From IMG/VR virus record IMGVR_UViG_3300025322_000089, positions 1-37,525 of that record: DNA of 37,525 bases. One strand, written 5' to 3'. Below, piece after piece: positions 9,507-37,238 of the stretch. Both the position numbers and the translations under genes were made by a program. The stretch's first letter is position 1. Each line of letters opens with the position of its first letter. The notes beneath the pieces were generated by a model. That model made no database searches. It saw only the letters and a program-made list of their open reading frames with translations, and was not told where the DNA came from. Source of the stretch: a virus.

Positions 9507-10049
9507 ATGACAAAGTATATAAAAGAAAAAGATTCCTTTGGACAATGGTGGCTCGTTAATAGAGTAACCGGATGGCACACTCGGCTCGTAGAGAGGGAAT
9601 GTAAATATTGTAGTAAAAAATATACAGTTGTTCCCTCTCGAATGAGTCAGGGTTTGTTTGGTAACTTTTGTTCCAAAAAATGTGCGGGAAAATACAATCC
9701 CGAAAGATATGGGATAAAAGGATACAAACATTACAACTGGAGTGGTGGAAAAATCAACTTTAAAGGATATAGAAAAGTGCACGTTCCAACACATCCGAAC
9801 GCTGTCGGTGGTAAATATGTTTTTGAGCACCGTTTAGTAATGGAGAAGGAACTAGGTAGATATTTACTACCTTGGGAAAAAATACACCATATAAATGGTA
9901 ATAAATCCGATAATAGAATTGAAAATCTAGAACTCTGGACAACGAGACATTTAGATGGAGTTAGAAGTAAAGATTTTAAAGTAAAGTGTCCTAGATGTAA
10001 GGAAGAAATAAACTACGACGAACTTCTTAAAATACTTAACTTCCAATAA
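9507..10049 (+). CDS. HNH homing endonuclease
   Basis: 180 aa. N-terminal zinc finger CKYCSKKY...FCSKKCAGKY (about residues 32-57), then an HNH_3-type nuclease core with FEHRLVMEKELGRYLLPWEKIHHINGNKSDNRIENLELW, where HHINGNKSDNR is the catalytic and metal-binding part, and a C-terminal second CPRC pair. It is a free-standing selfish endonuclease inserted between structural genes, with its own near-leaderless promoter. Close in design to the gene at 31875. It cuts DNA lacking the gene, favouring its spread; target unknown. Confidence 0.88.
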   Translation: MTKYIKEKDSFGQWWLVNRVTGWHTRLVERECKYCSKKYTVVPSRMSQGLFGNFCSKKCAGKYNPERYGIKGYKHYNWSGGKINFKGYRKVHVPTHPNAVGGKYVFEHRLVMEKELGRYLLPWEKIHHINGNKSDNRIENLELWTTRHLDGVRSKDFKVKCPRCKEEINYDELLKILNFQ

Positions 10050-11707: not shown

Positions 11708-12301
11708 ATGCTTAAATACTGCACCAAAACAATCTCTCTTTCGGGGGATATAGCAAAAGAGAAAAACAAAGCTCTGCGTGAAATGCTTAAAACAGACAAA
11801 GATTACTTCTTTTTAGTCGAGGATAACTGCAAAGTCTTAGACGACCAAGTTTACGAGAAATTCATAGAAACTTCAGAAGCTACAGGTATTCATGCGTTAA
11901 TGTGGGCCAGAGGGGGAATAAATAAACGCATAGGATTCGATGAGGATAGATACATTCAATACTATACAGACTTTGTGTCTTCATTTTCAATGTTTACCCG
12001 TAAAGCGGTAGAAAAGGTAGGTTTCTTTGATGAGAAGATGCCCCCTAACACATGGCAAGAATTAGAGTACGCCAAAAGAATAGGGGATGTTGAATTAGGA
12101 ACTCCGTTTGGGCTATTCGCAGCTCCCAGAGGGGTTGACCAGTACTTCGAGATAACTACACCCAAAGATGAGTTTAAGAACCTCAAACAAATGGAAGAAG
12201 CGTTGCAGTATTGGGAAAGTAAGGATTTAGAGGACTTCCCGATTGACGTTAAAAGAAACAAAGAAGTGATGAGGGTTCAACCGATAACTGAAATGATCTA
12301 A
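11708..12301 (+). CDS. Glycosyltransferase-like protein, GT-A fold
   Basis: 197 aa. The segment DYFFLVEDNCKVLDDQVYEKF (about 31-51) with acidic EDN resembles the nucleotide-sugar metal site, and FSMFTRKAVEKVGFFDEKMPPNTWQELEYAKRIG (about 97-130) matches the acceptor-side pattern of GT2-type enzymes. It lacks the canonical N-terminal VSVVIPTYN strand and is short. It leads the glycan cassette directly behind terminator B. Sugar and acceptor unknown; a non-catalytic glycan-binding role is possible. Confidence 0.6.
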   Translation: MLKYCTKTISLSGDIAKEKNKALREMLKTDKDYFFLVEDNCKVLDDQVYEKFIETSEATGIHALMWARGGINKRIGFDEDRYIQYYTDFVSSFSMFTRKAVEKVGFFDEKMPPNTWQELEYAKRIGDVELGTPFGLFAAPRGVDQYFEITTPKDEFKNLKQMEEALQYWESKDLEDFPIDVKRNKEVMRVQPITEMI

Positions 12302-31839: not shown

Positions 31840-31868
31840 TTGCATTTAGTTTGGCTTGGGTGTATCAT
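31840..31868 (+). promoter_or_regulatory. Leaderless promoter of HNH gene
   Basis: TTGCAT (31840-31845), 17-base spacer, TATCAT (31863-31868), then 6 bases to ATG 31875. This spacing puts the transcription start on the start codon. It sets the gene start at 31875 rather than the in-frame TTG at 31851, which lies inside the promoter. Confidence 0.7.
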
Positions 31869-31874
31869 ATCTTC

Positions 31875-32372
31875 ATGGTATTTAATTGTGCCTTTTGTCA
31901 TAAAACATATAAAAGTAGAAATCGAAAATCTAAATTTTGTAGTCGATCTTGTTTGGGAAAAAGTAGAATCGGACCAAAAAACTCGTTTTTCGGTAAGAGA
32001 CACTCGGCAAAAGTAAAACAAATAATGAGCGAGATTAAGAAAGGAAAGACCAGTGGCGTATTGGGAATGCACTGGAAAATAAAAGATACTTCTAAAATGA
32101 TAGGAAGAACTCCGTGGAACAAAGGTTTGGGTGGCAAAATTATAAAACACGGATACTTCTTGATAAAGATGTCCCAACATCCATATGCAAATTCAATGGG
32201 TTATGTAAGAGAACATCGACTGGTTATGGAAAAGGAAACTGGAAGATATCTATTGGTGGGCGAGGTGGTTCATCATATCAATGGAAATAAACTAGACAAT
32301 CGACTTAAAAATCTTAAACTATATTCTTCTAACAAAGAACACGAGAACGTAGAACACCTTAAAAGAAAATAG
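31875..32372 (+). CDS. HNH homing endonuclease with NUMOD-like motif
   Basis: 165 aa. Zinc finger CAFCHKTY...FCSRSCLGKS (about 5-30), a NUMOD3-like helix NSFFGKRHSAKVKQIMSEIKK (about 36-56), a WNKGLGGK linker, then an HNH_3 core with EHRLVMEKETGRYLLVGEVVHHINGNKLDNR. The core is closely related to that of the gene at 9507 and the linker to that at 24101, so the three share parts. Free-standing mobile endonuclease with its own leaderless promoter, inserted after the phosphoesterase gene. Confidence 0.88.
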   Translation: MVFNCAFCHKTYKSRNRKSKFCSRSCLGKSRIGPKNSFFGKRHSAKVKQIMSEIKKGKTSGVLGMHWKIKDTSKMIGRTPWNKGLGGKIIKHGYFLIKMSQHPYANSMGYVREHRLVMEKETGRYLLVGEVVHHINGNKLDNRLKNLKLYSSNKEHENVEHLKRK

Positions 32373-36230: not shown

Positions 36231-36239
36231 GGATTTTGG

Positions 36240-36331
36240 GGTGCGGGTAATAGAAAATTATCAGGCCTGACGTAATTTACTGAGGGTTCCTGTGCAGGGC
36301 CGAAAGGCAACATTACAGGTTTACCCGCACC
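36240..36331 (+). ncRNA. Structured leader RNA of unknown class
   Basis: An 11-bp perfect outer stem GGTGCGGGTAA (36240-36250)/TTACCCGCACC (36321-36331) encloses AAATTA/TAATTT (36255-36260/36273-36278) whose loop holds the 10-base palindrome TCAGGCCTGA, and CCTGT/ACAGG (36289-36293/36315-36319) containing GCC-GAAA-GGC with a GNRA loop. A multi-helix junction in an otherwise gene-free gap, 40 bases before the repeat-protein gene. No T-tract. Could be a riboswitch-like leader, ribozyme or stable RNA. Confidence 0.6.
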
Positions 36332-36371
36332 ACTAAAGTCTTTAATAACGAAAGGATAAGAAATTATAAAA

Positions 36372-37238
36372 ATGTGTAAGGCTGTAAGTATTTTAATAAC
36401 CAAAAGTAAAAAAGTATATTGGAAAGGAGGAGTAGATTCTCACGATGAACTCCAGACTTTGTATGTCAAAAAAGACAAAGAGTTAAAAGATGATGTAATG
36501 CCTCCTGAAAACACTTTTGCAAGAATTGAAATCAACCCCAAAGATGGCAATTATCTTAACCCAAAACAAAAGTGGGTATTTAAGATTGACGAAGCGGTTA
36601 CACCCTCTTGGTTAGATAAAAGTTATGAGAAACCTTGTTATGACGCTTGTAAAAAGTGGCAGAAATTAGTTTATTCAAGAATCAATCTAAAAGAAGCAAT
36701 TAAACCCATCCATCCTTTTAGGATTAAACCTCCAAAGATAAGTACAAGACATCTTAAACTCTTGGCGAAGTGGGACTCGGTTGGGGACTCGGTTTGGGCC
36801 TCGGTTAGGGACTCGGTTGGGGACTCGGTTGGGGCCTCGGTTTGGGCCTCGGTTAGGGACTCGGTTGGGGCCTCGGTTAGGGACTCGGTTGGGGACTCGG
36901 TTTGGGACTCGGTTTGGGACTCGGTTTGGGCCTCGGTTAGGGACTCGGTTGGGGCCTCGGTTTGGGACTCGGTTAGGGCCTCGGTTAGGGACTCGGTTGG
37001 GGCCTCGGTTTGGGACTCGGTTAGGGCCTATAACGGCTCTCTATACAAAGGAATTAAGAAGTGGAAGTATTGTTCAAAGGTTAAAGAAAAAGGCTATCCA
37101 TTCAAATCCGCAGTCAAATTGTGGAAGATGGGGCTTGTGGGGACAACAGATGGAACTAATTGGTACTTACTGGGTGGCCCGAAAGCAAAAATTCTCTGGA
37201 AGGGAACAAAACAGGATTTAAAGAAGTATAGAGGATAA
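36372..37238 (+). CDS. Repeat protein with 21 four-residue units
   Basis: 288 aa. Residues 1-134 form a mixed, basic domain (MCKAVSILITKSKKVYWKGG; FARIEINPKDGNYLNPKQKWVFKID). Residues 135-218 are 21 units [DA]-S-V-[GWR], encoded by 12-base repeats. Residues 219-288 are a Lys/Trp-rich end (KKWKYCSKVKEKGYPFKSAV; LVGTTDGTNWYLLGG). AAAGGA lies 15 bases before ATG, far for a ribosome site. No known family named; the C-terminal region looks like a small folded domain. Strong candidate for a fast-changing surface or binding protein. Confidence 0.75.
   Translation: MCKAVSILITKSKKVYWKGGVDSHDELQTLYVKKDKELKDDVMPPENTFARIEINPKDGNYLNPKQKWVFKIDEAVTPSWLDKSYEKPCYDACKKWQKLVYSRINLKEAIKPIHPFRIKPPKISTRHLKLLAKWDSVGDSVWASVRDSVGDSVGASVWASVRDSVGASVRDSVGDSVWDSVWDSVWASVRDSVGASVWDSVRASVRDSVGASVWDSVRAYNGSLYKGIKKWKYCSKVKEKGYPFKSAVKLWKMGLVGTTDGTNWYLLGGPKAKILWKGTKQDLKKYRG
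36774..37025 (+). repeat. Tandem 12-base repeat array, 21 units
   Basis: All units read G-[A/C]-C-TCG-GTT-[G/T/A]-GG; only base 2 and base 10 vary, and each change alters an amino acid. Units ending Gly, Trp and Arg number seven each; all seven Gly units begin with Asp. The four-unit block ASVR-DSVG-ASVW-DSVR occurs twice in tandem (units 14-17, 18-21), a 48-base higher-order duplication. The period is a multiple of three, so length changes stay in frame. Confidence 0.97.

What the first reader, a model, noticed from the sequence alone, without database searches (positions are those of the whole stretch)
36774..37025. Hyper-regular 12-base array encodes a combinatorial [DA]SV[GWR] repeat
Ten of 12 bases are invariant in 21 units; the only two variable bases are both amino-acid-changing, with no silent change anywhere. 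The third variable residue class is balanced (seven Gly, seven Trp, seven Arg). A tandem 48-base duplication at the 3' end shows recent expansion. Tandem repeats prone to slippage or recombination would change copy number in frame, giving a rapidly varying segment. Flanked by two conserved-looking domains and a structured leader RNA, it may be a phase- or antigen-variable virion or inhibitor protein. Function is unknown.
Basis: partly seen in the sequence, partly recalled or inferred. Interest (0 to 1): 0.85.

Follow-up and report, generated by a model that had tools for sequence, protein, structure and literature searches.

The report
Fast-reshuffling four-residue phage repeat
A phage protein carries 21 near-identical four-amino-acid repeats in which only two amino acids per repeat vary; dozens of uncultivated phages share this design, and the order of repeats is rebuilt far faster than the rest of the gene, which looks like a protein surface kept variable by selection.

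Summary
In detail: window 36774-37025 holds 21 in-frame 12-base units in a 288-aa ORF (36372-37238) of a terminally redundant (circular) ~37.4-kb tailed phage. Only bases 2 and 10 vary, and every change alters an amino acid. The same [x]SV[x] array lies in over 100 IMG/VR loci, in two profile-unrelated scaffolds (a linker-array-C-domain cassette under several N-domains; DUF6745 proteins) and in short third-type proteins. Across 75 distinct arrays, bases 2 and 10 are polymorphic in 96% and 99%; silent third bases in 13-20%. Silent states are uniform within arrays but differ between arrays. Arginine uses one codon per array in 62 of 66 arrays (5.8 expected), which argues against random mutagenesis of base 10; no reverse transcriptase was found. 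Unit order is lost even at 94% flank identity, and in one near-identical phage pair the array differs 40-130-fold more than the rest. Best reading: a coding minisatellite homogenised by recombination, with diversity at two residues per unit kept by selection. It works like PRDM9 or fungal HNWD repeats but belongs to neither. A binding role is inferred. Copy-number phase variation is not supported; virion location was not tested. Main caveat: short-read assemblies can misplace such repeats.

The parts
36372..37238 (+). ORF of 288 aa carrying the array (ATG to stop)
   Evidence: identical in contig 3300025312_000078
36372..36773 (+). N-terminal domain, residues 1-134, with invariant Met-Cys at 1-2; alpha/beta by AlphaFold2, no known family
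36705..36773 (+). Linker PIHPFRIKPPKISTRHLKLLAKW just before the array; the only part shared with the DUF7666-type N-domains
   Evidence: hhalign probability 94% over 22 columns
36774..37025 (+). Array of 21 units G[A/C]C TCG GTT [G/T/A]GG = [DA]SV[GWR]
36930..36977 (+). First copy of the exact 48-bp tandem duplication (units 14-17)
36978..37025 (+). Second copy of the 48-bp duplication (units 18-21)
37026..37238 (+). C-terminal domain AYxGSxF..WKY..YPF..LWxxGLV..; relatives in 104 viral stretches under several N-domains
36236..36371 (+). Structured leader upstream of the start codon (z -3.8); not seen in nine relatives, role unknown

Best explanation
The array is a coding minisatellite: a predicted helical repeat region between two folded domains of a phage protein of unknown function. 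SHOWN: (1) variation within arrays is concentrated at X1 (base 2: Asp/Ala, sometimes Gly/Val/Asn) and X4 (base 10, sometimes 11: Gly/Trp/Arg, sometimes Ser/Leu/Asp/Glu); (2) silent sites are nearly uniform within an array but differ between arrays; (3) each amino acid at X4 has as a rule one codon per array, so variation comes from copying a few unit types, not from repeated mutation; (4) unit order and number are remade much faster than the flanks diverge. INFERRED: recombination between units (gene conversion, unequal exchange) homogenises the units, while selection keeps X1 and X4 diverse, most likely because they form a binding surface that must keep changing against a variable partner such as a host or rival-phage protein. 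The partner and any activity are unknown.
For: 75 distinct arrays of 8 or more units: mean heterozygosity 0.43 (base 2) and 0.58 (base 10) against 0.03-0.04 at third bases 3, 6, 9 and 12. Sixty-two of 66 arrays with two or more Arg at X4 use one Arg codon (33 AGG, 22 CGG, 7 CGC; 5.8 expected if independent), although AGG and CGG differ only at base 10. Flank identity 65-94%: unit-order z between -1.9 and 1.4, against 3.7 and 7.9 at 100% flank identity. Near-identical phages L042/L083: 11 differences in the 204-bp array against 13 (4 outside one clustered patch) in 9.3 kb; Fisher P 7e-13; all 11 codon changes replace an amino acid, none silent, no length change. Related phages differ in the Arg codon of the whole array (CGG in L014, AGG in L020). 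DUF6745 proteins of a M. abscessus prophage ([DG]QL[WRG], about 46 units) and of N. farcinica NCTC 11134 ([DA]QV[GWRE]) vary the same two residues around other cores. AlphaFold2 gives helix for the array at low confidence (block pLDDT 36-81) and for a decayed homologous region at 61-87.
Against: No partner, no structure of the array, no functional assay. Most near-identical contig sets have identical arrays, so change is not seen every time. Most loci come from metagenome assemblies, and short-read assemblies scramble such repeats (PMC12222747); this could inflate array differences. Formal dN/dS is not valid on repeats evolving in concert (argued for Prdm9 in PMC3890296). A diverse composition may be needed for folding, not for recognition.
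Confidence: 0.55

Rival explanations
1. Structural heteropolymer: the array is only a helical rod or spacer that needs some mix of Trp, Arg, Gly, Asp and Ala; order carries no information and nothing is recognised.
For: Pooled composition is near-even (G 211, W 254, R 248); copy number runs from about 3 to 48 with the same kinds of flanking domains; order is almost random; some relatives have decayed or tiny arrays (L247, L286).
Against: Composition is over-dispersed among arrays (chi2/df 1.6 and 2.1), so there is no tight composition rule. Free residues alone would give silent sites at least as much variation as base 2, an A/C transversion; the opposite is seen.
Confidence: 0.27
2. Phase- or antigen-variable protein switched by slippage of the 12-nt repeat in copy number.
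For: A 48-bp exact tandem duplication here and a 9-unit tandem block in L062; copy number differs between relatives.
Against: No copy-number difference in any near-identical contig set examined; 12 nt cannot change the frame; replacement without length change is what L042/L083 show.
Confidence: 0.08
3. Targeted mutagenesis of bases 2 and 10 (diversity-generating retroelement-like adenine mutagenesis or another site-directed mutator).
For: The unit GACTCGGTTAGG has A exactly at bases 2 and 10, and these vary.
Against: No RVT_1 match in the window. Third-base A of the Ser codon is not mutated (40/41 in L032, 17/17 in L211, 18/18 in L212, 16/16 in L274). Random bases at position 10 would mix AGG and CGG; one of 66 arrays does so with these two codons.
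Confidence: 0.02
4. Assembly artefact or DNA-level repeat (such as an iteron or protein-binding array) that happens to be open.
For: Tandem repeats are often misassembled (PMC6868369, PMC12222747).
Against: Four contigs carry one 20-unit array over kilobases, one of them split over two fetched pieces; arrays of the same design stand in GenBank phage and complete plasmid records. Ser is encoded by both TCN and AGY across arrays, so the protein, not the DNA, is conserved.
Confidence: 0.08

Closest known systems
PRDM9 zinc-finger array (coding minisatellite; PMC3890296)
   Same: Tandem coding units homogenised by recombination; variation concentrated in non-synonymous changes at a few contact residues per unit.
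   Different: 28-codon C2H2 zinc-finger unit, eukaryotic DNA binding; here a 12-bp unit, no zinc finger, phage, target unknown.
Fungal HNWD NOD-like receptors and high-internal-conservation repeats (PMC12222747, PMC4986451)
   Same: Highly similar repeats in concerted evolution with a few hypervariable codons under diversifying selection; alleles differ by repeat combinations.
   Different: 42-aa WD40 (or ANK, TPR) units of known fold in receptors with NOD and effector domains; here 4-aa units predicted helical and no effector domain recognised.
DUF6745 proteins (Pfam PF20530)
   Same: Several phage, prophage and bacterial members carry the same kind of array ([DA]SV[GWR], [DG]QL[WRG], [DA]QV[GWRE]) before the domain.
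   Different: The window protein has no DUF6745 match; its C-domain is unrelated by hhalign (probability 0.1%). Some DUF6745 proteins (Microcystis phages, Streptomyces) have no array.
DUF7666 proteins (Pfam PF24703)
   Same: DUF7666 N-domains sit before the same linker, array and C-domain in related viral loci.
   Different: The window's own N-domain is not DUF7666 and matches that group only in the 22-residue linker.
Dulem virus 35 protein XCD05138.1
   Same: Related N-domain (36% identity over 99 aa) followed by a regular repeat.
   Different: Its repeat is M[WR][EG][NS]SQ[VI]G[EKD], not [x]SV[x].

Membership tests
High-internal-conservation (HIC) repeats as defined in PMC4986451 | over 85% amino-acid identity between repeats over at least 100 aa | tested here: not met
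   Array is 84 aa; mean unit identity about 71% in protein (two of four residues vary), about 90% in DNA, worked out from the counts
High-internal-conservation (HIC) repeats as defined in PMC4986451 | few hypervariable codons with homogenised rest (the mode of evolution) | tested here: met
PRDM9-type zinc-finger minisatellite | C2H2 zinc-finger unit | tested here: not met
   Unit is [DA]SV[GWR]; no Pfam match
Diversity-generating retroelement target | reverse transcriptase in the element | tested here: not met
   RVT_1 absent from the window, which is a complete genome; control rings in 3 of 14 genomes
Diversity-generating retroelement target | changes at adenines of the template | tested here: not met
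   Third-base A of Ser stays fixed in several arrays
Phase-variable contingency locus | repeat length change that shifts the frame or switches expression | tested here: not met
   12-nt unit, in frame; promoter effects not examined
Phase-variable contingency locus | copy number varying within a population | tested here: inconclusive
   No difference in near-identical contigs, but reads are not available
DUF6745 (PF20530) | profile match above the gathering score | tested here: not met
   for the window protein; met for the L039 relative
DUF7666 (PF24703) | profile match above the gathering score | tested here: not met
   for the window protein; met for L080 (29.3 bits) and L307 (31.2 bits), cut-off 27
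Known anti-phage defence proteins (PADLOC) | profile match | tested here: not met
   none for the window protein

The most novel reading that the evidence does not exclude
The array is a modular recognition code: each 4-residue unit presents one of about six side-chain pairs (Asp/Ala x Gly/Trp/Arg), and phages re-target the protein by recombining units, a minimal natural analogue of zinc-finger or TALE codes used by at least two unrelated protein scaffolds.
Probability: 0.15. Interest if true: 0.9.

Novelty: new variant of a known kind. Interest (0 to 1): 0.62.

Why it matters
It is a widespread, almost unstudied repeat (no paper in the held library names DUF6745 or DUF7666; the window protein has no Pfam or NCBIfam match) in which concerted evolution and diversification can be separated inside 12 bases. 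If the variable residues bind something, these arrays mark a fast-evolving phage interaction surface, and the reduced alphabet makes its code directly testable. If they do not, they are a clean case of what maintains diversity in a repeat against homogenisation.

Tried and rejected
Rfam on the window and on the array region: no match. Foldseek of both AlphaFold2 models against PDB, and of the first against BFVD: no E <= 0.001; the two best BFVD hits (E 0.032) are unannotated phage proteins. Solved-structure search: only weak hits to serotonin transporters and a halogenase, judged spurious because of the Trp-rich profile. PADLOC and NCBIfam: nothing for the window protein. GenBank phages: N-domain in three distant records, C-domain and array none (BLAST's low-complexity filter is on, so absence of the array there is weak evidence). 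Diversity-generating retroelement: rejected. Neighbour analysis: no conserved neighbour. Common ancestry of the window C-domain with DUF6745: not supported.

Full report
Observation. The window holds one tandem array: 21 units of G[A/C]C-TCG-GTT-[G/T/A]GG at 36774-37025, encoding [DA]SV[GWR], in frame in the 288-aa ORF 36372-37238. Bases 2 and 10 are the only variable ones and every difference changes the amino acid. The last eight units are an exact 48-bp duplication (P about 0.02 against shuffled order). The window's last 126 bases repeat its bases 13-138, and contig 3300025312_000078 runs across that junction at 100% identity, so the record is a complete, terminally redundant or circular genome of about 37.4 kb. 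Terminase subunits, a portal-like protein and a major head protein identify a tailed phage. The matching contig has the same array, but may come from related sequencing data.

Relatives. An exact-core pattern finds 14 stretches in IMG/VR and a degenerate one 77. The N-domain profile finds 28 loci and the C-domain profile 104 stretches, of which 79 loci were kept. Nearly all carry the array, with about 3 to 48 units. The module that travels is a linker (PF..PP.I...HI.LLKxW), the array, and the C-domain; it sits behind MCxAFS-type, MCxFFS-type or DUF7666-type N-domains; the first and third of these share only the linker by hhalign. Unrelated to the C-domain by hhalign are DUF6745 proteins, which carry the same array between their N-terminal segment and the DUF6745 domain. 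A third context is short proteins, MTTEEKIL-array-EYAYDY, several per contig.

What varies. I compared 75 distinct arrays of at least 8 units. Mean heterozygosity is 0.43 at base 2, 0.58 at base 10, 0.14 at base 11 and 0.11 at base 1, and 0.03-0.04 at the third bases 3, 6, 9 and 12. Arrays fix their own silent states (Ser TCG, TCA, TCT, TCC or AGC; Val GTT, GTG or GTC). Free residues without selection would leave the four-fold sites at least as variable as base 2; they are not. The Arg codon test separates copying from mutation. AGG and CGG are synonymous and differ at the very base that varies. Of 66 arrays with two or more Arg at X4, 62 use a single Arg codon (33 AGG, 22 CGG, 7 CGC), against 5.8 expected if codons were drawn independently, and only one mixes AGG with CGG. 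So a few unit types are copied around; base 10 is not mutated repeatedly. There is no reverse transcriptase match, and adenines at silent sites stay put, so a diversity-generating retroelement is very unlikely.

How fast. Between relatives whose flanks are 65-94% identical, unit order is no more similar than shuffled (z -1.9 to 1.4), and copy number often differs (for example 13 against 17 units at 94%); at 100% flank identity z is 3.7 and 7.9. The near-identical contigs L042 and L083 differ at 11 of 204 array bases and 13 of 9,268 others, 9 of the latter in one patch; all 11 array codons change the amino acid, length is unchanged, and most new units already exist elsewhere in the array. L014 and L017 differ in the array by one Asp/Ala change and elsewhere only near a contig end. 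Other near-identical sets have identical arrays. The picture is bursts of unit replacement, not steady slippage. Caution: short-read assemblies of such repeats are unreliable (PMC12222747, PMC6868369).

Independent records. DUF6745 searches in GenBank phages and PLSDB plasmids found the same scheme with other cores: Mycobacterium prophage prophiGD102-1, about 46 units of G[A/G]C-CAG-CTC-[T/C/G]GG = [DG]QL[WRG]; Nocardia farcinica NCTC 11134, [DA]QV[GWRE], in one open frame in one record and interrupted by gaps in a 99.9% identical second record; phage cta39025, SSL[WGRE]. Microcystis phages and Streptomyces have DUF6745 without an array. The variable residues and their alphabet are therefore more conserved than the core between them.

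Structure. AlphaFold2 on 25 relatives gives mostly confident N- and C-domains and a helical array at low confidence (pLDDT 36-81 by block). A homologue whose array has decayed into ordinary sequence gives helices there with pLDDT 61-87. No PDB or viral-model match reaches E 0.001.

Interpretation. The mode of evolution matches PRDM9 zinc fingers, where variation is mostly non-synonymous at the contact residues while the rest is homogenised (PMC3890296), and the HNWD receptors of Podospora (PMC12222747, PMC4986451). I infer the same logic: recombination homogenises, selection keeps X1 and X4 diverse, most likely as a changing binding surface. The strict HIC definition and the zinc-finger feature are not met, so this is 'works like', not 'is a'. 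The main rival is a helical heteropolymer whose composition matters and order does not. Copy-number phase variation, targeted mutagenesis and a DNA-level array are disfavoured for the reasons given. Virion location was not tested directly; neighbours of relatives include replication, recombination and some packaging genes.

Noticed in passing
window 1-37525: The last 126 bp repeat bases 13-138: a terminally redundant, complete ~37.4-kb tailed-phage genome; two HNH endonucleases (9507-10049, 31851-32372) and a glycosyltransferase-like ORF (11708-12301).
   Followed up: partly
window 36236-36371: Strong leader hairpin (z -3.8) directly upstream of the ORF, without Rfam match and without counterpart upstream of nine relatives.
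   Followed up: partly
L042 1574-1601 (against L083): Second local patch of differences (substitutions and a 3-bp indel) in a low-complexity Pro/Ala/Lys-rich ORF upstream of the array gene.
   Followed up: no
L046, L047, L050, L056, L069, L070, L072, L079, L084, L085: Very short proteins of the type MTTEEKIL-[NSVxDSVx]n-EYAYDY, several array stretches per contig (e.g. 3300042889_002648), often with Asn/Asp at X1.
   Followed up: no
L098, L101, L108, L117, L166, L167, L174, L181, L182: ASVGASVG runs (about 8-47 units) mostly in gut and rumen Clostridia genomes; X4 Gly fixed; possibly unrelated.
   Followed up: no
L325, L331: DUF6745 genes lie near STM4015 and STM4011/STM4012 family genes in Streptomyces and Deinococcus plasmids.
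   Followed up: no
L207 3001-3753: Dulem virus 35 protein joins a related N-domain to a different regular repeat, M[WR][EG][NS]SQ[VI]G[EKD].
   Followed up: partly
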